40,724 bases of DNA. Origin: Planctomycetaceae bacterium. GTDB taxonomy: Bacteria; Planctomycetota; Planctomycetia; Pirellulales; Pirellulaceae. The position numbers and the translations under genes are program-made. The notes beneath the pieces were generated by a model that worked only from the letters and a program-made list of their open reading frames with translations, searched no databases and was not told the origin of the DNA. The stretch lies in NCBI GenBank assembly GCA_018658605.1, contig JABHUV010000349.1, positions 1 to 40,724 of the forward strand, written 5' to 3'. Of this stretch, positions 10,611 to 37,136 are shown one piece after another (positions within the stretch are counted from its first letter, which is position 1; each line of letters opens with the position of its first letter).

Positions 10611-11546
10611 TTGAATACACGAACACTATCAATAGCATTGGCGTTGGGATTACTTTACAGCGGCGTTAGCGCCGCAGTGCCTACGCTGGAACTGGCCCAA
10701 CAAATATCTGCGAGAACTGGACGACCTATTCTGGTTATGGCGGGCGCGGATACGTGACCGGCTTGTCGCGTCCTGGAGAAACGATTGGCAACCGATCGTA
10801 GTCTCACAGGACTCGTGGCACAGTTTGTGCCGTTGAAAATTAATACGTCCTCCCCAGACTGGCGGACGATCAGCAAGAATTATCCGACCCCAGGTAATAC
10901 AATTCCGGTGGTCTATGTAATACGCGCGGATGGCAAACAAATATTCGCTAAGCGAAGTTCGCTGCCCGGTGATGAGTTGCCATTTGTATTGCGAGGGTCG
11001 TTGCAGAACGCCGGCGGTATTTTGAGTGACGTGCAATCAAGCTCGGTGATGAAGGCAGTGTCTGTGGCCACCCAAGCGTTAGGCAGTGACGATGTGTATG
11101 CGGCCGTGCAAGCAGTGAAACCATTAACTAAATTGGGCACATTGGGAAATCTTCAGAGTTATGCTAAACCGATTCAAGATGCCAATGCAGTCGTGGCGGA
11201 TATTTTGAAGCAAGCGGGTTTGGATTTGAAGGAGATTGAATCAAAGTTGCAATCCCCAGAGACTGCGGTCCGAGGAACTTCTGGTTTATTTGCATCGATG
11301 CGAACCTACTCAATTTTTCCGACGCTAAAGAGACAATTTGGTGTCTTGCACCGCAACGCTTCGGGAAAAGATGAACTGTTGGTTGCCCTGGCTCAGGGCA
11401 AGGCGATAGATAAAGCGATGGCGCTGAGCACATTGCGTGGTGGTACGAGCAAAGCGATCTTGGAGCTGGAGCGCTTGGCCCAAATGTTCCAAGAGACGGC
11501 GACCCTCGCGCTGATTGAGGAAAAGATCGCGAGTTTGAAGCAATAG
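10611..11546 (+). CDS. Thioredoxin-like protein with in-frame UGA at the first active-site Cys; candidate selenoprotein
   Basis: Read through the UGA, the gene encodes 311 residues. It has a signal peptide (MNTRTLSIALALGLLYSGVSA), then a thioredoxin fold: beta strand GRPILVMAGADT, UGA at codon 49, then PAC at 50-52, a helix (RVLEKRL), and the cis-Pro strand NTIPVVYVI. Thioredoxin-fold oxidoreductases carry CxxC at this place, so the UGA stands exactly where the attacking Cys should be, giving U-P-A-C. The remaining about 170 residues are helical and unrecognised. TTG start with GGGAG five bases upstream; stop TAG. The frame stays open and motif-rich for 263 codons after the UGA, and a hairpin lies at 10781-10799. 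A nonsense mutation is the alternative, but two other genes here show the same pattern. If Sec is inserted, this is an exported thiol/selenol redox protein. Ordinary callers would start at TTG 10785 and lose the active site. Confidence 0.8.
10755..10757 (+). other. In-frame UGA, predicted selenocysteine codon (residue 49)
   Basis: The TGA is in frame with the signal peptide upstream and with PAC and the cis-Pro strand downstream. It occupies the first Cys position of a thioredoxin CxxC motif. Confidence 0.75.
10781..10799 (+). promoter_or_regulatory. Hairpin 3' of the UGA, candidate bacterial SECIS element
   Basis: Eight bases at 10781-10788 pair with 10792-10799, with one G-U pair and a three-base loop. 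The loop region lies about 30 bases after the UGA, inside the range usually given for bacterial SECIS loops. The loop does not start with G unless the top pair is open, so this is only a candidate. Confidence 0.4.
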
Positions 11547-11552
11547 AAGCCC

Positions 11553-13013
11553 CTACAGGTCGTTTCTGCGTACCGCAGCGAGTTTTGCTTTTAGCTGGGC
11601 TTTAAATCCCGTAACGATTTTGTCGTATTTTGGGTCTCCGGCTAAGTTGGTGTACTGCAGTGGGTCCTTATGCATGTCGAATAATTCAATTCCCTTCGAT
11701 GCATCTTCCGCGTATTGTATGTATGCCCAATCTTGATCGCGTAACAAAAAGCCCCTGCCGTTGACCGTAAACGCCGCTTTACGCACTTTCATTGTTGGGT
11801 CACTAAGCATTCCCGAAATATCCTTACCTTGTAGGCGGCTTGGCACTTCTAAGCCACAGAGGCTCGATAAAGTTGGGTAGAGGTCGAGCAATTCAGTGAA
11901 AGAATCGCAAATTGCCGGCTTCTTGCCGGGAACGCTAATAATCAACGGTACGCGGACCGACTCTTCGTGCAAACTCACCTTGGCCCAGAAATCGTGTTCG
12001 CCTAGATGGTAACCATGGTCGCTAGTGAAAATAACAATTGTCCGATCAGCGATCCCCGCGTTCTCTAAGGCGGTCATCACCTTCCCGACTTGCGCATCCA
12101 TATAGGCGACCGATGCGTAATACCCGCCCACTGCTTTGCGTTGTTTGGAAACGTTCATTTTCATATTCTTACTGGTTTTGTAGTTGATGCCTGCGGGTGG
12201 TATATCATCCCAGTCGCCGGGTACTTTTTCCGGTAACAACATCTTGGAATAGGGAAAGGGTTCATAATATTTTTTAGGCGCTACGAAGGGAACATGAGGT
12301 CGCACGAAACCGACGCCCAAGAAAAATGGTTGGTCTTTATGTGCCGCGATAAGCTTGCACGCTTTGGCGGCCGTCCGGCCGTCGGAGTGGACTAGGTCAT
12401 CGCCATCAGCTTCCACCACCACGAATGTATTACCACCCTTCACAGGTAACTTGCCGTCTGGATTGCCCTCTAACGTCCAGCCCAGCCCAGGGGCTTTCCA
12501 CTCAGGACCTTGGCTGTTAAACCGCTCGGTCCAACACCGCGGATCGTCGGCGCCGTCGGTTCCCGCTTCAATCCCACCCGGTACTCCCATATGAAATATT
12601 TTCGAAACGCGCGCGGTATAGAAACCATTGTTCTTGAAGTGTTCAGCCCACATCGCTCGATCACCAATGGCCGGGCGCGGCGTTTTGTAACCCAACATAC
12701 CCGTGGCATGTGGGTAATACCCAGACATGAAAGACGCACGGGACGGTCCACAATAGGTGCCCTGGCAATAGGCTCTAGTAAAGCGAGTGCCCGTAGCTGC
12801 TATAGCATCGATATTGGGAGTGTGACAAACGTCGTTGCCGTAACAGGAGAGCGCCGTATAGGTAAGATCATCGGAAATTATGAACAATACGTTGTAGGGT
12901 TTGTCTGCCTCCGCCGCTGTGGTTTTAAGGCAGACGTTGGGAATGAACAAGCTAACGCAAAACATAGTAACAAATAAACACCAAGGGCACTTGTTGAGCA
13001 AACTATTCGTCAT
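11553..13013 (-). CDS. Secreted sulfatase, iduronate-2-sulfatase-like
   Basis: The start is set at the ATG at 13013 (486 residues) because AGGA at 13022-13025 is eight bases upstream; an ATG at 13022 would overlap that site. A hydrophobic signal (about residues 7-30) precedes the sulfatase fold. VLFIISDD holds the first metal-binding Asp pair (48-49). The active-site motif is CGPSRASFMSG, Cys 88, which formylglycine-generating enzyme would convert. HDFWAK and TSDHGYHLGEHD carry later metal and substrate ligands. Arylsulfatase-family enzymes hydrolyse sulfate esters, in planctomycetes often of algal polysaccharides; the substrate here is not readable. It ends six bases from the oppositely oriented thioredoxin-like gene, so the two transcripts converge. 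A second sulfatase lies immediately upstream on the same strand. Confidence 0.92.
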   Translation of the reverse strand: MTNSLLNKCPWCLFVTMFCVSLFIPNVCLKTTAAEADKPYNVLFIISDDLTYTALSCYGNDVCHTPNIDAIAATGTRFTRAYCQGTYCGPSRASFMSGYYPHATGMLGYKTPRPAIGDRAMWAEHFKNNGFYTARVSKIFHMGVPGGIEAGTDGADDPRCWTERFNSQGPEWKAPGLGWTLEGNPDGKLPVKGGNTFVVVEADGDDLVHSDGRTAAKACKLIAAHKDQPFFLGVGFVRPHVPFVAPKKYYEPFPYSKMLLPEKVPGDWDDIPPAGINYKTSKNMKMNVSKQRKAVGGYYASVAYMDAQVGKVMTALENAGIADRTIVIFTSDHGYHLGEHDFWAKVSLHEESVRVPLIISVPGKKPAICDSFTELLDLYPTLSSLCGLEVPSRLQGKDISGMLSDPTMKVRKAAFTVNGRGFLLRDQDWAYIQYAEDASKGIELFDMHKDPLQYTNLAGDPKYDKIVTGFKAQLKAKLAAVRRNDL

Positions 13014-13128
13014 TGATTTCATCCTAAATGTTTCTCTTTTATGGACACAACTATCTAAGTCAATTGTAGCAAATCTCTGCTGGTTAAAAGCGAGGTGGTG
13101 TATAGGGCCGTGCGCAATCCCGGTGAGA

Positions 13129-14595
13129 CTATTTGACAGGAATATGACGCAGTAATTCTTGCACGACGGTCATATTCTCACCTGCCAGATTACGCACTGG
13201 ATCAAAACCCGTTGTTTCATCAAACAACTCGTAATCTGCGTAGTGACCGTCTACCTTGGATGTAATCAACCTATATCGGTCCGTCCTTACACTCACGGCT
13301 TTGCCCCAGAAACTTAACGCGGCCTCACGCACGGTCGCCTGAGGGTTCTTGAGGATCGGCGTCATATCTTTCCCATCCAGTGGGTATTGCGTTTGGTTGA
13401 AAGTTGGTTTAGCGAGTGCAACAAGAGTGGGGTAAACGTCGATGGTTTCCACTAAGGATGTGCTTTTCTTGCCTGAGGTCACACCCGGCACGCGGATTAT
13501 TAGCGGGCTACGCACCGCTCGCTCAAACGGGGCGTGTTTAGCCCACATGTGACTGTCCCCCAAATTCCATCCGTGATCGCCCCACAGGACGACGATCGTA
13601 TTATCTGCAAGTCCGAATTTCTTAAGCGCTAAAAGTACCTTGCCAACTTGGCGATCGGTATAGCGTACGCAGGCCAGATATGCTCGGCGTAAATCATGTA
13701 TTTTTCGATCATCGAGCGGTCGTGTCTTGGAAAATGGAAACGTATACTTAAAAAATTCACCGCTACCGTGATAGTGTTCGCTATCGGGTTTTTGCGGATA
13801 CGGTGGAGCAGGAATTGTTACATCGGCAAAAGCATCCCAGTCGCCTTTCGTGGCGACAAAGGGCAGGTGGGGTTTAAAGAACCCCAGACCCAAAAAAAAC
13901 GGTTGTGAACTTTTACTATAGTTGGCCAAACGAGCGATTGCCGTTTCCGCCAATAAGCCGTCCGGTAAGTCGGTATCCTCAACTGCTGAGAACTGCAATA
14001 CATCCTTATGGCCTTGCCCATCCTCGCGGTGAAGGCCATTGTTGTAAGCAAAGAAAATTCCCCAACCTCGCTTCCAAGAACCAAAAGGCGTAGGCAGGTC
14101 ATCCCAGGCATGTGGTACCTCCGGTCGCCCGTTGCCGGTGCCGTTGTATTGATAAACGCGGCCATCTGCCGTGTGAGATATCTTCCCGATACAAGTTGTT
14201 TGGTAACCGCTGCGACGAAAAAGTTCCGGTAGAGTTTGAGCTCCGGCCAGTTTTGTTTTAGAGATCGCCGAAGAACCACTGTACAAAGCGCCGTTACTGC
14301 GCGTCACGCCGGACTTAAGTGGACTTTTTCCAGTCAGCAGAGCATAACGCGACGCGCCACAAGTAGGTACTTGAACAAAATGGTTAACGAACAGAGTCGA
14401 GTTTCGGGCAAATTCATCAATGGACGGTGTGTCTACATATTCGGCGCCATAGCAACCAAGTTCTGGTCGTAAATCATCAACAGCAATGAAAAGTATATTT
14501 AACGGTTTGCTTTGCCCAAACGATAATTGCGTAAAAGAAACGAAAAAGATCAGAATCGATGCTACGTAAAATAATAATGTTCGTTGCAAACACAT
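13129..14595 (-). CDS. Secreted sulfatase, iduronate-2-sulfatase-like
   Basis: This 488-residue protein begins with a strong signal peptide (LLFYVASILIFFVSFTQLSFG). The fold starts at LNILFIAVDDLRPELGCYG with the metal-binding Asp pair at 40-41. The modification motif is TCGASRYALLTG: C79-G-A-S-R, in which Cys is followed by G-A rather than the more common x-P but still fits C-x-[PA]-x-R. VLWGDHGWNLGDSHMWAKH supplies further ligands. It is clearly related to, but well diverged from, the sulfatase at 11553-13013, with 115 bases between the two on the same strand. Probable role: hydrolysis of sulfate esters outside the cytoplasm. The upstream HMA gene ends at a strong terminator, so this gene probably has its own promoter between 14596 and 14732. 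Confidence 0.92.
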   Translation of the reverse strand: MCLQRTLLFYVASILIFFVSFTQLSFGQSKPLNILFIAVDDLRPELGCYGAEYVDTPSIDEFARNSTLFVNHFVQVPTCGASRYALLTGKSPLKSGVTRSNGALYSGSSAISKTKLAGAQTLPELFRRSGYQTTCIGKISHTADGRVYQYNGTGNGRPEVPHAWDDLPTPFGSWKRGWGIFFAYNNGLHREDGQGHKDVLQFSAVEDTDLPDGLLAETAIARLANYSKSSQPFFLGLGFFKPHLPFVATKGDWDAFADVTIPAPPYPQKPDSEHYHGSGEFFKYTFPFSKTRPLDDRKIHDLRRAYLACVRYTDRQVGKVLLALKKFGLADNTIVVLWGDHGWNLGDSHMWAKHAPFERAVRSPLIIRVPGVTSGKKSTSLVETIDVYPTLVALAKPTFNQTQYPLDGKDMTPILKNPQATVREAALSFWGKAVSVRTDRYRLITSKVDGHYADYELFDETTGFDPVRNLAGENMTVVQELLRHIPVK

Positions 14596-14732
14596 AATTC
14601 GGTTTTCATAGTGAGAATAATAGTAGCGACTGAAGTGAATAGGAATTAGTAGTATACCTAAGTATCACCACGCGCTGTACTGGGTTCACCGCTCCGACGG
14701 CGGTTAATAGCGAAAGCTGTAATTCGATATAG

Positions 14733-14769
14733 AAAAAGGGGATGGAGTCTGTTGAAAGACTCCATCCCC
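14733..14769 (-). terminator. Rho-independent terminator of the HMA selenoprotein-candidate gene
   Basis: A perfect 13-bp stem (14757-14769 with 14738-14750) with a six-base loop is followed on the minus strand by five U residues (14737-14733). It lies 25 bases after the stop at 14795, so transcription of the HMA gene runs on past its internal UGA to a proper end. Confidence 0.92.
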
Positions 14770-14794
14770 TGTGGATGATCAGCGAATAATAATG

Positions 14795-15148
14795 TTATTG
14801 CTTCTTGCTGGCGGTGAAATTGCCAGCCCCACTTACAGCAGCAACTACGTCTTTGTCCTCATAGCCGTCGCCTTTGGTTATGATTACGACTTTGTTATCA
14901 AAATCGACTTTGTGTTCAGATACACCCGGTACCTGTGCTATCGCGTCATTGACGGCGCTAACGCAAGCCGTTGCTCAGGTCATGCCTTCAATGCCGAAGG
15001 CAACTTGATTCAAGTCAAGTTCGGTACTGCTAGTTTCATTAGTGGTTCCTTCCGTTTCGGGAACAGGAATGTTGGGCGTACCTTGATCGCAGCCAATAAA
15101 GGCAACTGTAAATAACAGGGCGGTTCCCAAGCTAAATATTCGTTTCAT
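14795..15148 (-). CDS. HMA-domain lipoprotein with in-frame UGA at the first metal-binding Cys; candidate selenoprotein
   Basis: Read through the UGA, the gene gives 117 residues. The N-terminus (MKRIFSLGTALLFTVAFIGC) is a lipoprotein-type signal with lipobox-like FIGC, Cys20. After a Thr/Glu-rich linker (21-45) comes an HMA fold: beta 1 VAFGIEGMT, UGA at codon 58, then ATAC (Cys62), helix VSAVNDAIAQVPGV, strand HKVDFDNKVVII, and a final ANF-type strand. HMA domains bind soft metals through GMTC-xx-C or the variant C-xxx-C; here the UGA replaces the first Cys (U-ATA-C). AGGAG at 15158-15162 is nine bases from the ATG. The gene has its own terminator. There are no frameshifts, and both halves are essential to the fold, so decay is unlikely. 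A Sec-containing HMA site would bind metal through a selenolate or act in redox; the role is inference. Confidence 0.82.
14952..14971 (-). promoter_or_regulatory. Hairpin 3' of the UGA, candidate bacterial SECIS element
   Basis: On the minus strand a five-pair lower stem (14971-14967 with 14956-14952) carries a two-base UU bulge, a two-pair upper stem and a GUUA loop (14962-14959). A bulged U and a loop beginning G-U resemble what SelB recognises in E. coli SECIS. The loop starts only 12 bases after the UGA, closer than usual. Confidence 0.45.
14975..14977 (-). other. In-frame UGA, predicted selenocysteine codon (residue 58)
   Basis: The codon lies between GMT and ATAC of an HMA metal-binding loop, in frame with the ATG at 15148 and the TAA at 14795-14797. 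It stands at the position of the first metal-binding Cys. Confidence 0.75.
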
Positions 15149-15209
15149 AGCGTGATGCTCCTAAGTAATAAGTGAAATGTGAGCAATAAGATTGCTGTTC
15201 ACAGACTAT

Positions 15210-15239
15210 ATGATACGTGGTTTATCGAAGGTTTGTCTA
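15210..15239 (-). promoter_or_regulatory. Possible sigma-70-like promoter for the HMA gene
   Basis: On the minus strand TAGACA (15239-15234) and TATCAT (15215-15210) are separated by 18 bases, about 60 bases upstream of the start codon. It is a match by eye only. Confidence 0.3.
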
Positions 15240-15303
15240 GTGAAACATCTGGTAAAATTGCTATAAGAAGAGAATTTCGAGCAAATGATTTGATAGTTGG
15301 TGT

Positions 15304-16761
15304 CTACGAGCAGACAGCGGTAATTACATTGCCATGCACGTCCGTAAGACTTTCGTTTCGCCCTTGGTGAAAATAGGTCAGGCGTTCATGATCCAATCCC
15401 ATTAAGTGCAGGATCGTAGCATGAATATCATGCACATGAGCTCGATCAATGACTGCTTCGAAGCCAAAATCGTCAGTTTCGCCGTAGCTAATTCCCCCTT
15501 TTACGCCACCACCAGCCATCCACATCGTAAAGCCGTAGGGGTTGTGGTTTCTGCCAGGCGCATTTTGCCCTTCACTAAAAGGCATTCGACCGAATTCGCC
15601 ACCCCATACGATAAGCGTTGAGTCAAGCAGTCCACGTTGCTCCAAGTCGGTTAGCAATGCGTCAACAGGTTTGTCTATTTCTGCGGCGTGTTGACCATGG
15701 TTATTTTCGATGCTGACGTGCGCGTCCCACGTATCGGCGAGGTGGCCACCGCCAGAATAAAGTTGAATAAAACGTACCCCTCGTTGCACCAAGCGACGAG
15801 CGACTAGGCAATTCCGGCCGAATTCATCGGTTGGGTGTTGGTCAATTCCATAAGCGTCCAAGGTGTTTTGGGATTCACGGCTTAGGTCAACGGCTTCTGG
15901 GGCCTCTGATTGCATGCGATACGCCAATTCATATGATTGAATACGTGAGGCTAGACCCCCACTTCCAGGTCGTTGCCGTAAGTGTTTGTCATTTAGTTTG
16001 GCGAGCAGATCAAGTTGGTTACGTTGAGCTTTTTTGTCTATGTGGGAGGGTCCCTTAAGGTCTAGGATTGGATTTCCAACGGGCCGAAACAAGGTTCCTT
16101 GGAATGTAGATGGCATAAACCCGCTCGAATAATTTGGTTGACCGGAAATAGGTCCACCTCGTTTATCCATCATCACAACATATCCAGGTAGGCTAGTATT
16201 TTCTGTGCCCAAACCGTAGACGGACCAACTTCCCAGTGAGGGGCGGCCTATAAAAGTGCTGCCCGTGTTCATAGCAACCAACGCTGAACCATGAGCGTGA
16301 CTATCAGCATGGCACGACTTGATAATTGCTAACTTATCGGCATGCTTCCGGATGCCGGGAAAGTAGTCTGAAATCAGTTGGCCACTTGCGCCCCCACGGC
16401 GAAAGGGACGAAAATTTGGTGTAAGAAATCCGACTTTGCGTCCACCGGAGTTGATATATGTTTTGTCATCTGGCAGCGGCTTACCGGCATATTTGCGCAG
16501 AGCAGGTTTATAGTCAAACGTGTCAACCTGGCTAGGTGCGCCGTTCATCATCAAAAAAATGCAGCTTTTCACCTTTGAAGGTAGGTGCGGTTTCCGAGCG
16601 GATAGGGGATTGGAAATATCAGAAGCTTCAACGTTTCTAGAAAAAAATTGGTCGGATTCTAGCAATGAGGCCAACGCTAGGCCAGCAAATCCACCCCCCA
16701 TTTGCCAGACAAACTCTCTACGGGATTGGCCACAGGGAAATAGTTGTTGATGGCGATTCAT
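15304..16761 (-). CDS. DUF1501 protein (alkaline-phosphatase-fold, Tat-exported)
   Basis: This 485-residue protein opens with a twin-Arg signal (SRREFVWQMGGGFAGLALASLL, residues 13-34). DUF1501 hallmarks follow: FLMMNGAPSQVDTFDYKP near residue 70, LSVNHADS-like KSCHADSHAHGSALVAMNTGS, the central GVRFIQLYSGG, then VWGGEFGRMPFSEG, GRNHNPYGFTMWMAGGG and a C-terminal LHLMGLDHERLTYFHQGR. In planctomycetes DUF1501 genes sit next to PSCyt1/DUF1549/DUF1553 genes, as here, with only 11 bases to the upstream gene. Function is not established; the fold is related to sulfatase/alkaline-phosphatase enzymes. A close paralogue is at 27401-28807, so the module is present twice in this window. Confidence 0.93.
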   Translation of the reverse strand: MNRHQQLFPCGQSRREFVWQMGGGFAGLALASLLESDQFFSRNVEASDISNPLSARKPHLPSKVKSCIFLMMNGAPSQVDTFDYKPALRKYAGKPLPDDKTYINSGGRKVGFLTPNFRPFRRGGASGQLISDYFPGIRKHADKLAIIKSCHADSHAHGSALVAMNTGSTFIGRPSLGSWSVYGLGTENTSLPGYVVMMDKRGGPISGQPNYSSGFMPSTFQGTLFRPVGNPILDLKGPSHIDKKAQRNQLDLLAKLNDKHLRQRPGSGGLASRIQSYELAYRMQSEAPEAVDLSRESQNTLDAYGIDQHPTDEFGRNCLVARRLVQRGVRFIQLYSGGGHLADTWDAHVSIENNHGQHAAEIDKPVDALLTDLEQRGLLDSTLIVWGGEFGRMPFSEGQNAPGRNHNPYGFTMWMAGGGVKGGISYGETDDFGFEAVIDRAHVHDIHATILHLMGLDHERLTYFHQGRNESLTDVHGNVITAVCS

Positions 16762-16772
16762 TTGAGTACCAC

Positions 16773-19730: not shown

Positions 19731-19739
19731 GTGAATATA

Positions 19740-20657: not shown

Positions 20658-20777
20658 GGAGGTGGAATCCTTTGTTCGTATTTAGACGCATGTATTTTAC
20701 CACAAAACGAAATAGGAGTTAGCGCGAACTAGGTGTAATAATATTTGCTCGTCCACATCGCCTGAGATTGGACAACC

Positions 20778-25478: not shown

Positions 25479-25679
25479 TTGTGTACCAGATTGAAGGAGT
25501 GCGTTGGGGAATTAGAATCGAGAATAGGTTATACTTCATACTATGCATAACATGAAAAATTGTCAGGTAATAAGTCTTTGTTTTTATTAATGAAATACAC
25601 CGTTTGTACTGCGTTTCACGGCATTTTCGGAATCTAAGGACTTTTTTATTCAAATTTTACGAGATATAGAGAGGTACCC

Positions 25680-27377: not shown

Positions 27378-27400
27378 TATTCCTGAAGTGGTGAAGCACA

Positions 27401-28807
27401 TCATGCAATAATGTCACGTATCACATGTCCTGAGACATCTGTCAATCTGAAATCTCGACCAGCATGGTGGTAGGTGAGTCTTTCGTGATCGAAACCCATT
27501 AGGTGCAGCATTGTGGCATGTAGGTCGTGGACGTGCGTTCGTTTCTCAATCGCACGGTACCCGAATTCATCGGTGTTACCGTAGGAATATCCACCTTTGA
27601 CTCCGCCACCGGCGAGCCAAATTGTGAAACCGTGGTGATTGTGATCGCGTCCCGTTGGATTGCCGCCGCCAATTGGGATCTCTACTGCGGGTGTTCGACC
27701 GAATTCGCCTCCACATATGACTAACGTTTCTTGCAGCAAACCTCGCTGCTCGAGATCAGTCAATAATGCAGCGATTGGCTGATCCGCTTGTTGGCCTAAA
27801 CTACGCATCGCCGAGTCTAGTCCACCATGCGTGTCCCACGGCTGCACATCACCGTGGAAACACTGTACAACTCTCACTCCTCTTTCGATTAATCGCCGAG
27901 CAATTAACAATTGCCGGCCATGTACAGACTCGGCATTATAAAGATCTTGAGTGACTTGGCTCTCACTAGAAATGTCAAACGCATCGGTCGCCTCCATCTG
28001 CATTCGATAAGCGAGTTCAAAGGACTGTATGCGTGCTTCCAGATTTGGATCGCCTAGGCGAAGTTGTTTGTGCGCTGAATTGAGGGCACTTAATAAGTCA
28101 AGTTGCCGCCGTTGTTGTGTTTTGTTTAACCGTGGATTGTTGATGTTAGCAATTAGCTCTTCAATACTAGTTTTACGAGTGTCGAGATAAGTGCCTTGGA
28201 AGATTCCAGGCAGGAAAGCGCTTCGCCAATTTGAGGAATCAGCAACGGGTAATCCAGGGCACATCGCAACGTACCCGGGAAGATTTTGGTTTTCCGTACC
28301 AAGTCCGTATGTTAGCCATGACCCATAACTTGGTCGCGATTGACGTTCGTCACCGGTGTTCATCAGACGCATGCTCTGTTCATGATTAGGCGTGTTCGCG
28401 TACATCGACTTGATAACGCAAATCTTATCAGCATGAGCGGATGCGGTTTTATCAAATATTTCGCTGCACCATAATCCACTATCGCCGTATTGCTTGAACC
28501 GAAAGGGAGACGCTAACGCCACACCGGTTTCTCGCTCTGTGGCAAGGTTGCGAAATGGCAGGGATTGGCCACCGCGTTTGTTAAGTTCCGGTTTGTAATC
28601 CCATGTGTCGACCTGGGATGGTCCGCCATTGAGATATATGTGGATAATGTGTTTTGCGCCGGCCCGAAAATGAGGACTTCTAAGGGCGAGTGGATTTTTG
28701 TCCGCTTGTAGCAACGACGGGAGTGCGGTTAATCCGAGGCCGGTGCCTAGCGACTGCAGCATTTGTCGGCGCGTCGAGTGAGGTGTGATTACTTTTTGAA
28801 AGTTCAT
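27401..28807 (-). CDS. DUF1501 protein (alkaline-phosphatase-fold, Tat-exported), second copy
   Basis: This 468-residue protein begins with a twin-Arg-like signal (STRRQMLQSLGTGLGLTALPSLL, residues 11-33). The DUF1501 blocks are all present: IHIYLNGGPSQVDTWDYKP, MYANTPNHEQSMRLMNTGD, GVRVVQCFHGD, VICGGEFGRTPAVE, GRDHNHHGFTIWLAGGG and MLHLMGFDHERLTYHHAGR. It matches the paralogue at 15304-16761 along nearly its whole length. It ends at a UGA (27403-27401), at the same place relative to the paralogue (which ends in TAG), so this UGA is a true stop. It follows the PSCyt1/DUF1549/DUF1553 gene by 33 bases on the same strand. The partner pairing supports a shared but unknown exported function. Confidence 0.93.
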   Translation of the reverse strand: MNFQKVITPHSTRRQMLQSLGTGLGLTALPSLLQADKNPLALRSPHFRAGAKHIIHIYLNGGPSQVDTWDYKPELNKRGGQSLPFRNLATERETGVALASPFRFKQYGDSGLWCSEIFDKTASAHADKICVIKSMYANTPNHEQSMRLMNTGDERQSRPSYGSWLTYGLGTENQNLPGYVAMCPGLPVADSSNWRSAFLPGIFQGTYLDTRKTSIEELIANINNPRLNKTQQRRQLDLLSALNSAHKQLRLGDPNLEARIQSFELAYRMQMEATDAFDISSESQVTQDLYNAESVHGRQLLIARRLIERGVRVVQCFHGDVQPWDTHGGLDSAMRSLGQQADQPIAALLTDLEQRGLLQETLVICGGEFGRTPAVEIPIGGGNPTGRDHNHHGFTIWLAGGGVKGGYSYGNTDEFGYRAIEKRTHVHDLHATMLHLMGFDHERLTYHHAGRDFRLTDVSGHVIRDIIA

Positions 28808-28840
28808 ATTAGATGCCGCATTGTCGTAACAGGCGTTGTA

Positions 28841-31800: not shown

Positions 31801-32323
31801 GTTGGCGGGAAACTAGCTCATCGATAGGGTGCAGTTGGGTTCGTAGTTTCGGGGCCGCAAGTGGTTGAAAGGCCCAGTGCGTTTTGGCGGCAAGGTCAAT
31901 GGCTGTTTCGGTTGGTTTGCCTTCGCGAGGATCAAAAGCGCCTGATCGAACCCAGTGCTTGAGAACCTCGATTTGTGAATTTGTTAACGGGTTACCCGCA
32001 TCTGCAGGAGGCATCAACTGGATATTGTTAGCATGCGTTATCGCACGAATGAGTAGGCTCGCACTTGGGTTGTGAGGAATTATAGCGGGGCCACTCTTGC
32101 CCCCTTTTTGCCAACCGACCTTAGTGTCGAGTCGGAGATTGGCTTCTGCTAAATCATCGCCGTGGCAATCATAGCAATGATTGATTAGTAATGGACGTAC
32201 CTTTTTCTCAAAAAATTCGTCGGGTTCGGCCGCGTTGGAAATAGAAGATGTTAGTGCCACGCCTAATAGGATTGGTAAGAATAATCCTATGTGACGGATA
32301 TCGTGGTGGACGGTAAAAATCAT
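28841..32323 (-). CDS. PSCyt1/DUF1549/DUF1553 cytochrome-type protein, with a NPCBM-like central domain
   Basis: The start is set at the ATG at 32323 (1160 residues), since translation from it begins with a normal signal peptide (HIGLFLPILLGVALTSSISNA). The longer reading to 32557 adds 78 His/Thr/Pro-rich residues that overlap the divergent promoter region. Next comes PSCyt1 with C50-YD-C53-H54, DUF1549 (with WLDVARYSDAKDG and CARCHDHKFDPI), then a central region that resembles NPCBM/NEW2 (about 740-900 on the long reading; GSWDYVRSGPP and TLDVTIYVDGQQVS), and DUF1553 (NPLTARVWVNRVWMHHFGN, FIMSSSTYRLSS, ending NELWFID). It differs from the copy at 16773 by having the central carbohydrate-binding-like domain rather than a C-terminal LamG. 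It probably acts with the DUF1501 protein downstream. The reaction is not known. Confidence 0.9.
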   Translation of the reverse strand: MIFTVHHDIRHIGLFLPILLGVALTSSISNAAEPDEFFEKKVRPLLINHCYDCHGDDLAEANLRLDTKVGWQKGGKSGPAIIPHNPSASLLIRAITHANNIQLMPPADAGNPLTNSQIEVLKHWVRSGAFDPREGKPTETAIDLAAKTHWAFQPLAAPKLRTQLHPIDELVSRQQRQAKIIPLGPATTRVLIRRMTYDLHGLPPTAEQLKTPANEIHQLVSELLDSPRYGERWGRHWLDVARYSDAKDGVLMYGDARIRPFAYTYRDYVIRAFNQDKPLNQFIREQLAADQLDLPAHSPDLAAMGLLTLGRLFDANIHDVIDDQIDVISRGFLGLTTACARCHDHKFDPIPTADYYSMYGIFASSEEPIMRPRIADVTPTSASFEEKYQQKLQQIDDRQSFLYHRTLAEVRGRTSQHFIKVATTEPDNAETTIFFLSLTPDQPRPSITYAWRQYIAQHNFSADPVFGPWYDLMKEPVLRPQHWRDQGVDDRLIAALVAATPQTPRDVATVYGDLLTSIYEKPRILRDELTSLLETRKLLGKQSLNLSDIITGGDGLGIGDSDLGIHPSTGGIVKGSTGFVEVENPDVFSQSKNKYVDGVFVPQKLDKQVITSTGLTIDGVPTNLSGSWDYVRSGPPSGYSSTTIDAINYSVAPHWCVALHANKGITFDLAPLREFHSFQKMTFKTVIGHVGEKGKSTLDVTIYVDGQQVSQHIGIKAQQAGIPIRLELNPSSQFLTFLVTQGLDGISHDQAILGDARFEIDPDEPFLNSIAVKIAALDKQLLTLEKQIDDLPSLEDDPLAQLLLSRESPCWFSERDVYHYLARQDKDAFRGLVNELDGIAVKDSTAADRAMIMVDKPIFCEPVIFQRGDAAYPGNSVPRQFLKILSGPKRVPYTGSSGRLELANAIADPQNPLTARVWVNRVWMHHFGNPLVENPSDFGLNTQRPIHHELLDLLAIRFINSGFRTKALHRFIMSSSTYRLSSIVPADRKLIEQSSVDPDNSLLWRANRRRLDLEQMRDTLLSISGQLDVTMYGRPPLITDESNYRRTVYAFVESQNLPNIVQIFDAASADTSTARRVTTTVPQQALFALNSKFVTAMAQSLTNQLTAKTTPPKIGQLYNLAFGRTPTPEEIQLGTVFLQANSWTDYAQVLLISNELWFID

Positions 32324-32564
32324 TTGACGGACATGGTAGGAACTTGTGGTGGGCTTGTGCGTGCGAATGTGATTATAACGCCTGACAATGGCACAAGCAA
32401 CTTTTGGCACTGGTGGGGTCGTGGGCGCACTCCTCGTGTATTGTGTTAAGTGTAATGACCGTAGGTCGCAGGGTTGTTCCGCCGTAGGGGCATTAGTTAG
32501 GTGTTGAGGCCGGCAAATTTTGGGGTTATGCGCACGAGGAGTTGAAATGATGTACATTGTTTAG

Positions 32565-34286
32565 ATGTTTATTAAACAAATATGGGACGTATTGGAATCC
32601 GATCGGCGTTTGATTGTGCTATCGGTGTTTTCTGGATTGTTGTTTACCGGCTTGGGGATCTTGCCGCCTCTGCTAGTACGGGAAATGCTCTTGTGGCTGC
32701 AGCCGGGAACGCAGCCGGGAAATTTTGCGGTGCTAGCGTTACTTGCCGCGAGTGTATACGCTGCTCGGGGTGCAATGCGGTATTGTTATGGACTGGCCTC
32801 CCATATTGCAGCCTACAATACTCTGCACCGCCTCACCAACCGCGTGTACGCGCATTTACAAACGATGTCGCCCTCATATTTGAATCGTCGACATTCAGGC
32901 AACTTGGTAGCGCGTAGTATTGGTGATGTGGATGCGATAGAGGATTTCATTGCTCACGGAATCCCCGAGACCGTTTTGGCGATCGTGATTCCCACTACGA
33001 TGAGCATCGTGTTGTTGGTTATTAATTGGCAGTTGGCGCTTGTCGCCTTGCTTCCGTTGCCCTTTCTCGCGATCGTGATGTATATTCTTCGCAAACGGAC
33101 ACGCAACTATTGGGGACATGTGCGGAAACAATTCGCGACCGTCTCGGCATTGATGAGCGATTTCCTTAATGGCATCAAGGTTATCCAAACTTTTCAAGCG
33201 TACCAAGTGACGTCAGCTCGCCTTAAGTTTCAAAGTAAAGACTATCGAGACAAGATTGTGCACGCCAACAAGTGGTCGTTAGTACCTGCTGGAGTAGTAG
33301 AAGTGTTCAGTGGCGCGGGAATTGTCTGTGTTATTTATGCCGGTTCGTGGATGGTGGCGGCAGGGCCTGACACTGAGTTGGAGGTGTCAATCCCCGACTT
33401 AGTCGTGTTCCTAATGTATCTCGGCCAAATTTTCCTGCCCTTCTTACGGCTCGCGACGATGACGGACCATATTCAGAAAGCGGCGGCTAGTGCAGCACGA
33501 GTATTTGAACTGCTAGAAGCCAAGCCCGATATTGTGGACGCGATGGATGCACGAACACCCCCTGATCCTAGTTATGATATCCACTTTGATGACGTGGAAT
33601 TTTCTTATCAGGCGGGTGAGCCAGTGCTCGCTGGCGCGACTTTTAGTATTGCACAAAACGAAATTGTTGCCCTCGTTGGCGAAACCGGTGTTGGTAAATC
33701 AACCGCCTGTCAATTACTGGTCCGTTTTCACGATATAACGCAAGGCGCCGTTCGCGTGGGTGGAGTGGACGTGCGTGAGCTACCGCTTGACTATCTTCGC
33801 CGGCACATTGCGATGGTACCGCAAGAGATGTTCTTGTTTGAGGGGAGTATTCGTGAAAACTTGTTGATCGGTAAAGAAGATGCCACAGAAACGGAGCTGC
33901 TAGAAGCTATTAAGCAAGCGGATGCGACTGAATTCGTGGAGTCTTTGGTTGACGGGCTCGACACAATAGGGGGTGAACGCGGAGTGCGTTTATCGGGCGG
34001 ACAAAAGCAGCGAGTCGGAATTGCACGGGCGTTGCTTAAAGATGCTCCGATTTTGGTTTTGGATGAAGCGACGAGTGCGGTAGATGTAGAAACTGAGTCG
34101 GCAATACGCCGAGCGATCCAACGAGCAGCGAAAGGTCGTACTGTGTTGATTGTAGCGCACCGGTTGGCGACTATAAAAACGGCCAGTCGTATTGTTGTTT
34201 TAGACAAAGGAAAAGTCGTCGAGCAGGGAACGTTTGCAGAGCTCGTGGAAAAGAAAGGTGTGTTTTGTCGAATTTACCAAGTCTAG
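32565..34286 (+). CDS. ABC exporter with fused membrane and ATPase domains (MsbA-like)
   Basis: This 573-residue half-transporter has six predicted helices in residues 1-300 (for example VLSVFSGLLFTGLGILPPLLV and ALVALLPLPFLAIVMYIL). The intracellular loop RHSGNLVARSIGDVDAIEDF is typical of type I exporters. The ATPase follows: Walker A GETGVGKST at about 371-379, Q-loop MVPQEMFLF, signature LSGGQKQR at about 476-483, Walker B ILVLDEATS at about 498, and H-loop IVAHRL near 531. Such proteins homodimerise and export lipids, drugs or peptides; the substrate is not readable. The gene is divergent from the PSCyt1 gene, with 241 bases between the two starts, and is followed 61 bases later by the MFS gene on the same strand, so the two may be co-expressed. 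Confidence 0.92.
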   Translation: MFIKQIWDVLESDRRLIVLSVFSGLLFTGLGILPPLLVREMLLWLQPGTQPGNFAVLALLAASVYAARGAMRYCYGLASHIAAYNTLHRLTNRVYAHLQTMSPSYLNRRHSGNLVARSIGDVDAIEDFIAHGIPETVLAIVIPTTMSIVLLVINWQLALVALLPLPFLAIVMYILRKRTRNYWGHVRKQFATVSALMSDFLNGIKVIQTFQAYQVTSARLKFQSKDYRDKIVHANKWSLVPAGVVEVFSGAGIVCVIYAGSWMVAAGPDTELEVSIPDLVVFLMYLGQIFLPFLRLATMTDHIQKAAASAARVFELLEAKPDIVDAMDARTPPDPSYDIHFDDVEFSYQAGEPVLAGATFSIAQNEIVALVGETGVGKSTACQLLVRFHDITQGAVRVGGVDVRELPLDYLRRHIAMVPQEMFLFEGSIRENLLIGKEDATETELLEAIKQADATEFVESLVDGLDTIGGERGVRLSGGQKQRVGIARALLKDAPILVLDEATSAVDVETESAIRRAIQRAAKGRTVLIVAHRLATIKTASRIVVLDKGKVVEQGTFAELVEKKGVFCRIYQV

Positions 34287-34334
34287 TTATTCGTCGCTAA
34301 CTTTGTGGCGTAGGTTGATATGAAAATTAATGGC

Positions 34335-34340
34335 AAGGAG
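34335..34340 (+). promoter_or_regulatory. Shine-Dalgarno AAGGAG that sets the start of the MFS gene
   Basis: AAGGAG lies seven bases upstream of ATG 34348. An in-frame ATG at 34330 lies before this site, so it is less likely to be the true start. Confidence 0.75.
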
Positions 34341-34347
34341 AGAATCG

Positions 34348-36075
34348 ATGGCATCGGATGGTAAAAGCCCAGGTTTCACGCGTTACGCGATTGTTGCGGT
34401 GTGTATGCTCATGGGCATATTGTTGTATATTGATCGGCTCTCTTTTTCCGTTGCTGAGCCCTATATCCGACAAGACCTCGGGCTGACTAAAATCCAAACG
34501 GGTTACTGCATCAGCGCGTTTTTCTGGTTTTATGCGTTAGGGCAAATGCCCGCCGGTTGGTTAACGGATCGTTTTGGACCGAGACTTATGTTGCCAATGT
34601 ACATCTTAGTTTGGTCGTTTTTCACGGCAATGATTGGCATGGTGACGGGCTTGGCTATGTTGATGGCGATGCGGGGCGCCTTTGGATTAGGCCAGGCCGG
34701 CGCATTTCCGACGGGGTCGAACGTGATCGGTCGATGGATACCCGCGGCCGGACGTGGTGGCGCGAGTAGCTTGGTTGCACTTGGTGGTCGAATCGGTGGC
34801 GCTGTGATGCCGTTGCTAACAGCATTCTTATTAGTAAATCTAGTTCCTGGAGATAAGGAATATACTTATCAAGCCGAACAAATGTTGGATCCGGTCGCAA
34901 TTGTTGGCAAACTTTATCCTCGAGCAATTGGGAATGCAATTGCGACGAATTCAGTGGACGACGTTAGTGCAATGGTAGAGAGTTTGCCTAAACACTTGGA
35001 GTACGTGAAGGACAACATGCCTAGTTCGCTTGTAGAGATGAGCTTACGGGTGTCGGATGATGAATATGCAATAAGTTCGGAAGACCAGAGAGTATTGGCG
35101 CAAGGTTTTAATGGGATCATCAATAACGCGCAGTTTTACAATCCTGAGGCATTTGCAAGTATGAAAAGTTTGAATCGGTATTGTTCACAATGCATTGCTC
35201 GCTTGGAAGAAGGGGAAGTATTGACGACGGACGAAACTCGTCAGTTCAATCGTTTTATATTGGAATCTATCTATTCCATAGAAATTGAAGGCGTTTATGT
35301 CTCAAGCTGGCGTTACGTGTTGTATATCTACGGAGCGTTTGGAATAGCAGTCGCTCTTATCGTTTGGCTTGTCATGCGTGATTCGCCAAGGGAACATCCA
35401 TGGTGTAATGAGGCGGAGCAGAAACTTATTCAGGGTACAGTCGTTGAAAATACCAAGACTGAGCCCTTTCCATTTAAGGAGATTATAGCTTGCCCTAGCA
35501 TGTGGTATTCGGCAATGAGTCAGTTCTTTATCAACGTAGCTTGGCTGTTTATTGTGACATGGTTTGTGGCGTTTTTGATGGAAGAACATAACTTGTCGAT
35601 CATGGAACGTAGTCTGGCTATGACAATTCCGATTAGCGTGGGTTTCTTTGGAATGCTTCTTGGCGGGCTCTTTACTGATTTCATGGCAAGAGGGGGGCGT
35701 AACTTACGACGTGCGCGAGCACTTCCCTGGGGTGGTGGTGCGTTGTTCGCCGCGGTTGCCTTCGCAGTTTGTCCATTATTAGATAATCCTTGGTCGATTA
35801 CCGCTATGATGGCCGTCGTCGCTTTTAGTGTGGATTTCGCGGTGCCCTCGGTCTGGGCGTTCACTCAAGACGTTGGTGGTAAATATGTGGGATCCGTATT
35901 GGGATTTGGTAATATGTTTGGTAACTTTGGCGCTGCCGTTTCTGGGCCACTGCTGGCCTATATTTCCATGGAATATAGTTGGAATTTCATGTTTCTCGTA
36001 TGCGCCGGTGTACTTTGTGTATCGTCAGGCGCTGGTTTCTTAGTGGATGCAAGTCGACCACTAGTTCCGCGCTAG
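34348..36075 (+). CDS. Major facilitator superfamily transporter with a large loop between helices 5 and 6-7
   Basis: From ATG 34348 the protein has 575 residues, against about 430 for typical MFS carriers. IDRLSFSVAEPYIRQDLGL (helix 1 end) and LTDRFGPRLMLP, the loop 2-3 signature, match the anion:cation symporter group. AMRGAFGLGQAGAFPTGSNVIGRW matches the helix 4 region. After helix 5 (VMPLLTAFLLVNLV), about 150 charged, mostly helical residues (about 164-317) are inserted before the next helix (YVLYIYGAFGIAVALIVWLV). The remaining helices are normal. Relatives carry organic anions such as hexuronates or glucarate; no substrate is certain. The insert most likely faces the periplasm, but topology was judged by eye. 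It may be an accessory or capture domain. The gene is probably co-transcribed with the ABC exporter upstream. Confidence 0.88.
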   Translation: MASDGKSPGFTRYAIVAVCMLMGILLYIDRLSFSVAEPYIRQDLGLTKIQTGYCISAFFWFYALGQMPAGWLTDRFGPRLMLPMYILVWSFFTAMIGMVTGLAMLMAMRGAFGLGQAGAFPTGSNVIGRWIPAAGRGGASSLVALGGRIGGAVMPLLTAFLLVNLVPGDKEYTYQAEQMLDPVAIVGKLYPRAIGNAIATNSVDDVSAMVESLPKHLEYVKDNMPSSLVEMSLRVSDDEYAISSEDQRVLAQGFNGIINNAQFYNPEAFASMKSLNRYCSQCIARLEEGEVLTTDETRQFNRFILESIYSIEIEGVYVSSWRYVLYIYGAFGIAVALIVWLVMRDSPREHPWCNEAEQKLIQGTVVENTKTEPFPFKEIIACPSMWYSAMSQFFINVAWLFIVTWFVAFLMEEHNLSIMERSLAMTIPISVGFFGMLLGGLFTDFMARGGRNLRRARALPWGGGALFAAVAFAVCPLLDNPWSITAMMAVVAFSVDFAVPSVWAFTQDVGGKYVGSVLGFGNMFGNFGAAVSGPLLAYISMEYSWNFMFLVCAGVLCVSSGAGFLVDASRPLVPR

Positions 36076-36154
36076 AGGTTTTGACACAGACAACTTGCGA
36101 GATTAGAAGTGTAAAGGCAAAAACTTTCGGTTTTACGTAGCTAGAACAAAAATG

Positions 36155-36193
36155 AAAAAAAACCTTCAATTGCTCACAGATGCGGTTTTTTTT
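36155..36193 (+). terminator. A8CC / GGU8 hairpin between the MFS and RRM genes
   Basis: Ten bases at 36155-36164 pair perfectly with 36184-36193, with a 19-base loop. The 3' arm ends in eight U residues, which makes it look like a terminator for the MFS gene, 80 bases past its stop. It could also lie in the 5' leader of the RRM gene and act as a temperature-sensitive structure, since AU-rich stems melt easily. Confidence 0.5.
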
Positions 36194-36313
36194 GATATAT
36201 TCACATAAGAGGCGGTTCTGTAACCTTGCATGGTTGCAGACCAATCAGTAACAGTTTATAGAGACTCAAGGATGCAAGTTTGAGTCGAAGTGCACGTCTT
36301 TGAGGAATTAATA

Positions 36314-36682
36314 ATGGCGAAGAATATTTATGTAGGCAACCTTAGTTACAGTGTGGGGAATGGTGATCTCGAATCTCTATTTTCACAGTTTGGTGATGTA
36401 TCCAGAGCGCAAGTTATCCAACACCGCGATACTGGTCGCAGCAAAGGATTTGGATTTGTCGAAATGGACGATGAAGATTCGGCCGAAAAAGCTATCGAAG
36501 AGCTCAACGGTTCCGAATTCGAAGGTCGAAATTTGACGGTCAACGAAGCTCGTCCTCGAGAAGATCGCCCGTCACGCGGCGGCGGCGGAGGAGGAGGAGG
36601 CTATGACGGCGGCGGCGGTGGTGGTGGTTACGACGGCGGCAGTAGTGGTGGCGGCGGCGGTGGCGGTCGCGGAGGCTGGTAG
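36314..36682 (+). CDS. RRM-domain RNA-binding protein with Gly-rich tail
   Basis: This 122-residue protein has one RRM: RNP2 IYVGNL at 5-10, RNP1 KGFGFVEM at 44-51, and the expected beta-alpha-beta-beta-alpha-beta order, ending in NLTVNEARPRED near residue 83. The tail is a run of Gly with Tyr, Asp and Arg (YDGGGGGGGYDGG), ending RGGW. The architecture matches bacterial Rbp-type glycine-rich RNA-binding proteins, which are often cold-induced and bind U-rich RNA. The start at 36314 has GAGGA at 36302-36306, seven bases upstream; an in-frame GTG at 36290 is less likely. A strong terminator follows 25 bases after the stop, so the gene is probably monocistronic. The leader carries the AU-rich hairpin at 36155-36193. 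Confidence 0.93.
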   Translation: MAKNIYVGNLSYSVGNGDLESLFSQFGDVSRAQVIQHRDTGRSKGFGFVEMDDEDSAEKAIEELNGSEFEGRNLTVNEARPREDRPSRGGGGGGGGYDGGGGGGGYDGGSSGGGGGGGRGGW

Positions 36683-36707
36683 AGCCAGTCAATCTAAACA
36701 ATCTTGA

Positions 36708-36744
36708 AACACGCGGGCGGGGTTACTTGCCTGCGTGTTTTTTT
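36708..36744 (+). terminator. Rho-independent terminator of the RRM gene
   Basis: An 11-bp stem (36708-36718 with 36729-36739, one G-U pair) is followed by a run of U to 36744. It separates the RRM gene from the ArsC-like gene, which therefore has its own promoter or depends on read-through. Confidence 0.88.
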
Positions 36745-36782
36745 CACTCGCATTTGCCAAACATTGGCTGAAAGTCACATTT

Positions 36783-37136
36783 ATGGCCAAACGAATTGAT
36801 TGGTATTTTCACAGGCCTAACTGAACGACTTGTACAAAATCGCAAGAGTTTCTTGTACAAGCCAGACTAACACCAGTGTTAGTCGAGAACGCGCGCAAGA
36901 TCTCCTTTGGTGCTGGGGAACTAAGAAATGTCGTTGGCACGGCCACGATGGTCTATGCAGCACGCGGAAAAAAAATTGTAAGTTTTGATCTCACTCAAGA
37001 CTCTGTGGTCTTGGATGATGCTGGAAAATATTTGCTGGGGCCAACGGGCAATTTGCGGGCGCCAGCGCTGCGATTCGGAAGTATTTTCGTTGTTGGTTTT
37101 AACGAAGAACTGTATACGCAACTATTGCGCCAATAA
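36783..37136 (+). CDS. ArsC-family protein with in-frame UGA at the first active-site Cys; candidate selenoprotein
   Basis: Read from the ATG at 36783 through the UGA, the gene gives 117 residues: MAKRIDWYFHRPN, then the UGA at codon 14, then TTC (Cys17) TKSQEFL. The strand, first Cys and following helix match ArsC/Spx-like thioredoxin folds with CxxC. The later FDLTQDSVV and LLGPTGNLRAPALRFGSIFVVGFNEELYTQLL match the conserved C-terminus of the planctomycete ArsC-like group, whose members are known to include a Sec-containing U-T-x-C form. Without UGA readthrough, gene callers would start at 36876 and lose the active site. A nine-pair hairpin at 36829-36861 lies four bases after the UGA and would place a loop G about 17 bases from it. 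The gene precedes a membrane protein by 68 bases. Likely a thiol-selenol oxidoreductase; arsenate reduction itself is not shown. Confidence 0.88.
36822..36824 (+). other. In-frame UGA, predicted selenocysteine codon (residue 14)
   Basis: This UGA lies between RPN and TTC in the first beta-alpha turn of an ArsC-like fold, in frame with ATG 36783 and TAA 37134-37136. Confidence 0.82.
36829..36861 (+). promoter_or_regulatory. Hairpin 3' of the UGA, candidate bacterial SECIS element
   Basis: Nine bases (36829-36837) pair perfectly with 36853-36861. Within the 15-base internal region UC can pair with GA to close a GCAA loop beginning with G at 36842, 17 bases after the UGA. Stem base, loop distance and loop-initial G all fit the bacterial SECIS description. 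The stem is symmetric (CTTGTACAA), so an unrelated inverted repeat is the alternative. Confidence 0.65.

What the first reader, a model, noticed from the sequence alone, without database searches (positions are those of the whole stretch)
10611..37136. Three unrelated genes each carry one in-frame UGA at a catalytic or metal-binding Cys position
Genes at 10611-11546 (thioredoxin-like, U-P-A-C), 14795-15148 (HMA lipoprotein, U-ATA-C) and 36783-37136 (ArsC-like, U-T-T-C) are open on both sides of exactly one UGA. In each case the UGA stands where the family has the first Cys of C-x(2-3)-C. Three independent nonsense mutations at exactly that residue would be very unlikely. The pattern points to a selenoprotein-rich planctomycete and to three genes that standard annotation would cut or miss.
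Basis: partly seen in the sequence, partly recalled or inferred. Interest (0 to 1): 0.93.

Follow-up and report, generated by a model that had tools for sequence, protein, structure and literature searches.

The report
Three planctomycete selenoprotein genes, two uncatalogued
Three genes in this stretch of planctomycete-like DNA each carry a single UGA 'stop' codon exactly where every aligned relative has either the same UGA or a cysteine codon, so the codon is very likely read as selenocysteine, and two of the three are in neither selenoprotein catalogue checked.

Summary
Each gene has one in-frame TGA at the first position of a C-x(2-3)-C pair (10755-10757 +, 14975-14977 -, 36822-36824 +).

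In 88 aligned genes (window included) that codon is TGA in 65 and TGC/TGT in 23, nothing else; at the second Cys TGA occurs 0 of 88 times. Coding is conserved on both sides.

The two closest relatives (TRX 87% and 82% identical) carry tRNA-Sec, selA, selB (in one as contig-end fragments) and selD. In 296 genomes of the order, 28 of 31 with a UGA form have tRNA-Sec, against 73 of 296 overall.

UGA forms of ArsC share a hairpin after the UGA: the best fold in 28 of 30 but not in the window copy, and in 0 of 6 Cys forms. For the other genes a SECIS is not established.

ArsC is a known selenoprotein family. The thioredoxin-helical protein and the U-x3-C HMA lipoprotein reach no NCBIfam selenoprotein cut-off and match no entry of a 2026 119-family list as whole proteins. 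Selenium insertion was not shown, the window's own genome is not held, and 'selenoprotein-rich' is not shown.

The parts
10611..11546 (+). TRX: predicted secreted thioredoxin-fold protein with a U-P-A-C site and an all-helical C-terminal region, 311 aa with one UGA; starts TTG after AGGGAG (10600-10605)
   Evidence: (PF13899 35.7 bits, cut-off 27); signal peptide judged by eye
10755..10757 (+). TRX Sec-UGA codon (residue 49)
   Evidence: TGA in 27 and Cys codon in 7 of 34 genes
10781..10799 (+). candidate SECIS hairpin of TRX (not conserved as a consensus; unproven)
   Evidence: no consensus by RNAalifold
14795..15148 (-). HMA: predicted lipoprotein with one heavy-metal-associated domain and a U-ATA-C site, 117 aa with one UGA; AGGAG at 15162-15158
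   Evidence: (PF00403 33.8 bits, cut-off 24.8); lipobox judged by eye
14975..14977 (-). HMA Sec-UGA codon (residue 58)
   Evidence: TGA in 8 and Cys codon in 10 of 18 genes
14927..14970 (-). candidate SECIS hairpin of HMA (unproven)
   Evidence: no consensus by RNAalifold
36783..37136 (+). ArsC-like (seleno)protein of family NF041106, U-T-T-C site, 117 aa with one UGA
   Evidence: 107.6 bits, cut-off 85
36822..36824 (+). ArsC-like Sec-UGA codon (residue 14)
   Evidence: TGA in 30 and Cys codon in 6 of 36 genes
36842..36856 (+). predicted SECIS hairpin of ArsC: GCAAGA-GUU-UCUUGU, 20-34 bases from the first base of the UGA; conserved in the family, but a competing 9-bp stem is the best fold of the window copy
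   Evidence: bases complementary in 28-30 of 30 UGA forms per pair; best fold of 28 of 30 UGA forms (not the window nor L087) and of 0 of 6 Cys forms

Best explanation
The three UGA codons are very likely selenocysteine codons of three real selenoprotein genes, decoded by the SelB/tRNA-Sec machinery that the two closest relatives carry (selB as contig-end fragments in one). Shown: one in-frame TGA per gene, conserved across distant relatives at a column that is otherwise only Cys, with conserved coding on both sides, and Sec machinery in the relatives. Inferred: that the window's own organism has the same machinery, and that selenium is actually inserted. Likely roles: TRX is a secreted thioredoxin-fold oxidoreductase with Sec as the attacking residue of U-x2-C and an added helical domain. 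HMA is a secreted MerP/CopZ-like lipoprotein whose soft-metal pair is Sec-x3-Cys. The ArsC-like protein is a small Spx/ArsC-fold redox protein with U-x2-C. The functions are predicted from fold and motif only.
For: Codon at the column: TGA 65, TGC/TGT 23, other 0 of 88; second Cys of the same genes: TGA 0 of 88. TRX genes down to about 25% identity keep the TGA. dN/dS on both sides of the UGA is 0.08-0.13 for TRX and 0.09-0.10 for HMA, and 0.205 downstream for ArsC. All 9 HMA hits in the 5.8-billion-protein set carry W at the UGA column, which fits TGA read under table 4. tRNA-Sec over cut-off in 15 of 16 genomes, best hits 63.9-74.8 bits, with anticodon TCA by ARAGORN in 13 of the 16 loci scanned and the loop CUUCAAA in the two closest relatives. 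SelB 14, SelA 14 and SelD 15 of 16 over cut-off; 14 control genomes over cut-off: 2, 1 and 2. 8 of the 15 SelD genes carry a UGA themselves, at CAGUAGK in G002. In G002, tRNA-Sec, selB and selA lie within 12 kb on one contig. 28 of 31 UGA-form genomes have tRNA-Sec against 73 of 296 overall (Fisher p 2.3e-16, not corrected for kinship). ArsC hairpin: best fold of 28 of 30 UGA forms, 0 of 6 Cys forms. AlphaFold models (Cys in place of U) put residue 49 just before the helix that follows the first strand of a thioredoxin fold, and residue 58 just before the first helix of an HMA fold.
Against: The window's own genome is not held. 3 of 31 UGA-form genomes lack a detected tRNA-Sec (G007, G044, G295); G007 also lacks SelA and SelB, G010 lacks SelA and G003 SelD; assembly gaps are a likely cause but were not tested. 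The tRNA-Sec cut-off alone is loose: 5 of 14 control genomes pass it, 2 of 14 at the E <= 1e-10 used. The window's own ArsC RNA does not fold best into the conserved hairpin (a 9-bp stem at -9.7 kcal/mol wins; the hairpin alone gives -3.6), and that hairpin is nearly invariant, so covariation does not support it. RNAalifold finds no shared SECIS for TRX or HMA. Against synonymous resampling, mean z of UGA and Cys forms differ little: TRX -0.83 and -0.52, ArsC -0.85 and -0.14, HMA -0.92 and -0.54. One ArsC relative (L131) has a further in-frame TAG. Cys-form genomes often have tRNA-Sec too (9 of 21). No protein evidence.
Confidence: 0.95

Rival explanations
1. UGA is read as cysteine by a suppressor-like tRNA-Cys(UCA), so the proteins are ordinary thiol proteins.
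For: The column is exactly a Cys column. Such tRNAs are known in some bacteria (recalled; one search listed papers holding these terms, none read). No search for such a tRNA was made in whole genomes.
Against: The relatives carry a true tRNA-Sec with SelA, SelB and SelD, SelD itself uses UGA at its Sec site in G002, and the second Cys is UGA in 0 of 88 genes, which free UGA=Cys reading would not forbid; three HMA loci outside the 88 do have UGA at both places.
Confidence: 0.02
2. The whole organism reads UGA as a sense codon (Trp or Gly), and these are ordinary code-4-type genes.
For: Database gene callers give Trp at the HMA UGA column.
Against: UGA still ends 3 of 23 window genes, conserved internal UGA was seen only at Cys columns where synteny allowed the test, and no aligned homologue has Trp or Gly codons there.
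Confidence: 0.01
3. Nonsense mutations or sequencing errors in three genes, that is pseudogenes.
For: Any single TGA could be this; one relative (L131) does carry an extra TAG.
Against: The same TGA stands in 62 of 85 aligned genes of other genomes and TAA/TAG at that column in none; dN/dS is low after the TGA.
Confidence: 0.005
4. Sec is inserted in ArsC, but TRX and HMA are regulatory read-through or truncation products without a working SECIS.
For: No shared SECIS was found for TRX or HMA.
Against: TGA conservation and selection after the UGA are as clear for TRX and HMA as for ArsC; bacterial SECIS elements vary in sequence and register (established knowledge).
Confidence: 0.02

Closest known systems
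ArsC family (seleno)protein NF041106 (listed as 'Arsenate reductase-like protein, UxxC' in PMC13188914 Table 1; an 'Arsenate reductase 2, UxxC' in PMC2398784, passages seen)
   Same: ArsC-like gene scores 107.6 bits against cut-off 85, with UxxC and one Sec
   Different: Nothing essential; the conserved downstream hairpin was measured here
Metal-binding (seleno)protein NF041115 (UxxU)
   Same: Small HMA-like protein with Sec at the metal site
   Different: HMA scores 32.5 bits against cut-off 95, has U-x3-C instead of U-x2-U, and has a lipoprotein-like N-terminus
MerP / CopZ / PacS HMA domains
   Same: Same fold (Foldseek PDB hits 4a48, 1osd, 2qif; 41 hits at E <= 0.001) and GMT motif
   Different: Classical GMTCxxC has two residues between the Cys; here there are three, with Sec first
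Trx7/PDZ (seleno)protein NF041199, VPGUxxT families NF041382/NF041383, and the broad 'thiol:disulfide interchange protein, PF13098, UxxC' entry of PMC13188914
   Same: Thioredoxin-fold domain with a redox Sec; the PF13098 entry shares the UxxC motif
   Different: TRX and tested relatives score at most 20.4 bits against cut-offs of 275-350 of these NCBIfam models; TRX is below the PF13098 cut-off (19.3 against 27), though a broad thioredoxin-like label could still be stretched over it; own helical C-terminal region instead of PDZ
YbbN/CnoX (3qou)
   Same: Thioredoxin domain followed by a helical region; top Foldseek hit (E 6.9e-5)
   Different: TM-score 0.27-0.29 and rmsd 12.4 over the whole length, so the overall match is weak; TRX has a predicted signal peptide and a UxxC site
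Selenoproteins of Porphyra planctomycetes P1 and P2 (PMC4807772)
   Same: Planctomycetes with complete Sec machinery and putative selenoproteins
   Different: The passages seen name fdhA and fmdB; none of the three families here is named in those passages (supplementary tables not seen)

Membership tests
Selenoprotein gene (bacterial) | In-frame UGA at a column that is Cys in non-Sec homologues | tested here: met
   TGA 65, Cys codon 23, other 0 of 88
Selenoprotein gene (bacterial) | Coding selection on both sides of the UGA | tested here: met
   dN/dS 0.08-0.205 where computable; ArsC upstream part (13 codons) saturated and not computable
Selenoprotein gene (bacterial) | Organism has tRNA-Sec, SelA, SelB, SelD | tested here: inconclusive
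   Met in close relatives G001 (SelB as fragments below cut-off) and G002; window's own genome not held
Selenoprotein gene (bacterial) | SECIS hairpin just after the UGA, ArsC gene | tested here: inconclusive
   Family: best fold of 28 of 30 UGA forms and 0 of 6 Cys forms. Window copy: complementary bases present, but another stem is the best fold
Selenoprotein gene (bacterial) | SECIS hairpin just after the UGA, TRX and HMA genes | tested here: inconclusive
   Single-sequence hairpins only, no consensus
Selenoprotein gene (bacterial) | Selenium in the protein | not testable with these tools
   Needs 75Se labelling or mass spectrometry
ArsC family (seleno)protein NF041106 | Score over curated cut-off | tested here: met
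   107.6 against 85 bits
Metal-binding (seleno)protein NF041115 (UxxU) | Score over cut-off; U-x2-U site | tested here: not met
   32.5 against 95 bits; U-x3-C
HMA domain PF00403 | Gathering score and HMA fold | tested here: met
   33.8 against 24.8 bits; fold
Thioredoxin_7 PF13899 | Gathering score and thioredoxin fold | tested here: met
Trx7/PDZ NF041199 and VPGUxxT NF041383 | Score over cut-off | tested here: not met
   15.5 against 300 and 17 against 275 bits
YbbN/CnoX | Thioredoxin domain plus TPR-like C-terminal domain in the same arrangement | tested here: inconclusive
   Top Foldseek hit but TM 0.27-0.29; VIA-align rows mainly cover residues 19-135

The most novel reading that the evidence does not exclude
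Planctomycetes use selenocysteine as a soft-metal ligand in a secreted HMA lipoprotein family whose C-x3-C site has been converted one ligand at a time: C-x3-C, then U-x3-C (this window, its relatives, and five further phylum loci), then U-x3-U (three further loci). Alongside it, a secreted thioredoxin-helical protein with U-x2-C forms a second selenoprotein family of the group. Both would be new selenoprotein families.
Probability: 0.6. Interest if true: 0.65.

Novelty: new variant of a known kind. Interest (0 to 1): 0.52.

Why it matters
Standard gene calling cuts, misses or misreads these genes: of the database relatives viewed, 14 of 17 TRX and 9 of 11 ArsC proteins begin after the UGA, and 9 of 9 HMA proteins carry Trp there. 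If the reading is right, two protein families join the selenoprotein list. One of them puts selenium at a metal-binding site rather than a classical redox centre, which can be tested directly on a small soluble domain.

Tried and rejected
Plus-strand reading of 14795-15148: another frame, rejected. A codon-usage scan for further UGA genes failed to flag the window's TRX and ArsC genes, so its output was not used. A six-frame comparison with relatives was swamped by shadow frames and redone keeping only the best frame. A motif scan of 299 kb of G002 returned many chance frames and, judged by eye, no further convincing selenoprotein; it is not a census. RNAalifold and a register scan found no common SECIS for TRX or HMA. 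Two ORFs with one UGA near selB in G002 were examined: the UGA lies three codons from the end in one and in the 5' leader in the other, so both were rejected. A translation of SelD in the wrong frame was repeated in the right one.

Global UGA reassignment was rejected because UGA ends 3 of 23 window genes. A functional link between TRX and HMA was considered, because they are 3.3 kb apart here and about 12 kb apart in G002; two sulfatase genes lie between them in the window and nothing supports an operon. PDB rows for the TRX C-terminal region were absent from the VIA list, which tests that part poorly.

Rows dropped before the 88-gene count: five loci from genomes already counted (L103, L104, L105, L108, L110), one match not reaching the column (L124), and two not aligned by tblastn (L122, L126). 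The phylum loci are not in the 88.

Literature seen: PMC13188914 (passages, and section 7 parts 1-2 of 3 with the whole of Table 1); PMC4807772, PMC9312934, PMC2398784 and PMC5029168 (passages); PMC12013277 (term search, no hits). Not-in-print statements rest, and on the family libraries.
Full report
Observation. The three genes are there. With TGA read as a residue, 10611-11546 (+) is a 311-aa protein with U49 in U-P-A-C, and 36783-37136 (+) is a 117-aa protein with U14 in U-T-T-C. The HMA gene at 14795-15148 is on the minus strand, 117 aa with U58 in U-A-T-A-C; the finding gave no strand, and the plus frame is unrelated. Pfam places TRX in Thioredoxin_7 and HMA in PF00403, both over cut-off; the ArsC-like protein is below Pfam's ArsC cut-off but over the cut-off of NCBIfam NF041106, 'ArsC family (seleno)protein', with 107.6 against 85 bits. 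Ribosome-binding-like AGGGAG and AGGAG precede TRX and HMA.

Conservation of the UGA. Sixteen TRX relatives from a genome collection, 29-87% identical, all have TGA at that column. With relatives from a sample of 296 genomes of the same order and from the 16 genomes themselves, the counts including the window are: TRX, TGA 27 and Cys codon 7; ArsC, TGA 30 and Cys 6; HMA, TGA 8 and Cys 10. That is 65 TGA, 23 Cys codons and 0 others of 88. The second Cys of the same genes is TGC or TGT in 86, GCG in two distant TRX genes, and TGA in none; for HMA relatives without a Cys codon at the x3 spacing, the x2 position was taken. In-frame stops elsewhere within 10 codons before and 29 after: one TAG in one ArsC gene, L131. 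dN/dS is low on both sides of the UGA in TRX (0.08 before, 0.12-0.13 after) and HMA (0.09 and 0.10), and 0.205 after it in ArsC. Of the public database relatives whose sequences were viewed, 14 of 17 TRX and 9 of 11 ArsC proteins begin after the UGA column (the three remaining TRX and one of the remaining ArsC have Cys there; the other ArsC has a foreign N-terminus), and all 9 HMA relatives have Trp there, as gene callers with table 4 would write.

Machinery. No genome is held for the window. In the 16 genomes that hold a TRX relative, tRNA-Sec is over cut-off in 15, best hits 63.9-74.8 bits (the cut-off also passes 5 of 14 control genomes, so the scores and TCA anticodons matter more than the cut-off). 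SelB is over cut-off in 14, SelA in 14 and SelD in 15 (controls over cut-off 2, 1 and 2 of 14). The closest two, G001 and G002 (TRX 87% and 82%), have tRNA-Sec, SelA and SelD; SelB is whole in G002 and in contig-end fragments in G001. Their tRNA-Sec was missed by ARAGORN but found by Infernal with 63.9 bits and a CUUCAAA anticodon loop. G007 lacks all but SelD, G010 lacks SelA and G003 SelD. SelD carries a UGA itself in 8 of 15, at CAGUAGK in G002. In the 296 genomes, tRNA-Sec at E <= 1e-10 was found in 73 (stricter filters; 2 of 14 controls). Of 31 genomes with a UGA form of any of the three families 28 have it; of 21 with Cys forms only, 9 have it (kinship not corrected for). UGA ends 3 of 23 window genes, so the code is not globally changed.

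SECIS. In ArsC, UGA forms share a hairpin GCAAGA-GUU-UCUUGC at 20-34 bases: each of six pairs is complementary in 28-30 of 30, and the hairpin is in the best fold of 28 of 30, but of 0 of 6 Cys forms. The two exceptions are L087 and the window copy itself, whose best fold is a competing 9-bp stem (-9.7 kcal/mol; the hairpin alone -3.6). The stem hardly varies, so this is conservation linked to the UGA, not covariation. For TRX and HMA no consensus appeared. Mean z against dinucleotide shuffles was -0.83 (TRX), -1.38 (ArsC) and -1.15 (HMA) for UGA forms and -0.17, +0.29 and -0.13 for Cys forms. Against synonymous resampling, UGA forms were at -0.83, -0.85 and -0.92 and Cys forms at -0.52, -0.14 and -0.54. 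This is suggestive at most.

Novelty. ArsC is known. PMC13188914 Table 1 (119 families, read) lists NF041106, and PMC2398784 has an 'Arsenate reductase 2, UxxC'. HMA scores 32.5 against 95 for NF041115 (UxxU), and TRX at most 17 against 275 for any seleno model. TRX and HMA relatives likewise stay below cut-off (5 TRX and 4 HMA relatives, one of each a Cys form; 8 U-x3-C or U-x3-U HMA relatives). Neither whole protein is in Table 1 by domain and motif, though a broad 'thiol:disulfide interchange protein, PF13098, UxxC' entry could be stretched over the thioredoxin part of TRX. Text searches found no paper describing them, within an open-licence library that lacks PMC12013261. In a phylum sample of 352 genomes the TRX profile matched 3 genomes at E <= 1e-12; the HMA profile matched 211 at E <= 1e-8, many of them in long frames of the size of metal ATPases, so 211 is not a count of this lipoprotein. 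Of the 30 HMA loci fetched there, eight besides G002 show UGA at the site, five as U-x3-C and three as U-x3-U; Sec machinery was not searched in those genomes.

Verdict. Three selenoprotein genes, one of a known family and two apparently uncatalogued. 'Selenoprotein-rich' is not shown: G002 has at least four UGA genes.

Noticed in passing
L160:1477-1824 (-), L170:1459-1800 (+), L182:1459-1800 (+): HMA lipoproteins with two UGA codons, U-x3-U (GMTUGVTUV or GMTUGVAUV), in three other planctomycete-phylum genomes; 37.9-44.3 bits against the 95-bit cut-off of NF041115.
   Followed up: partly
L162:1013-1450 (+); similar motif in L178: Lipoprotein-like ORF with GMDUGQU (U-x2-U); the L162 protein has no NCBIfam match at E 1e-6; a possible further selenoprotein family.
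   Followed up: partly
L051-L058: SelD itself has one in-frame UGA in 8 of the 15 genomes with SelD.
   Followed up: partly
L131: ArsC-like relative in G008 with an extra in-frame TAG five codons after the UGA: damaged copy or sequence error.
   Followed up: no
L030, L031: tRNA-Sec of the two closest relatives is found by Infernal (63.9 bits) but missed by ARAGORN.
   Followed up: yes
window 36829-36861 (+): The window's ArsC copy has a perfect 9-bp inverted repeat (CUUGUACAA ... UUGUACAAG) after the UGA that outcompetes the conserved hairpin in the best fold.
   Followed up: partly
window 2777-9160 (+) and 444-2501 (+): A conserved 2127-aa and a conserved 685-aa protein with no Pfam match at E 1e-5, both kept in relative G002.
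   Followed up: no
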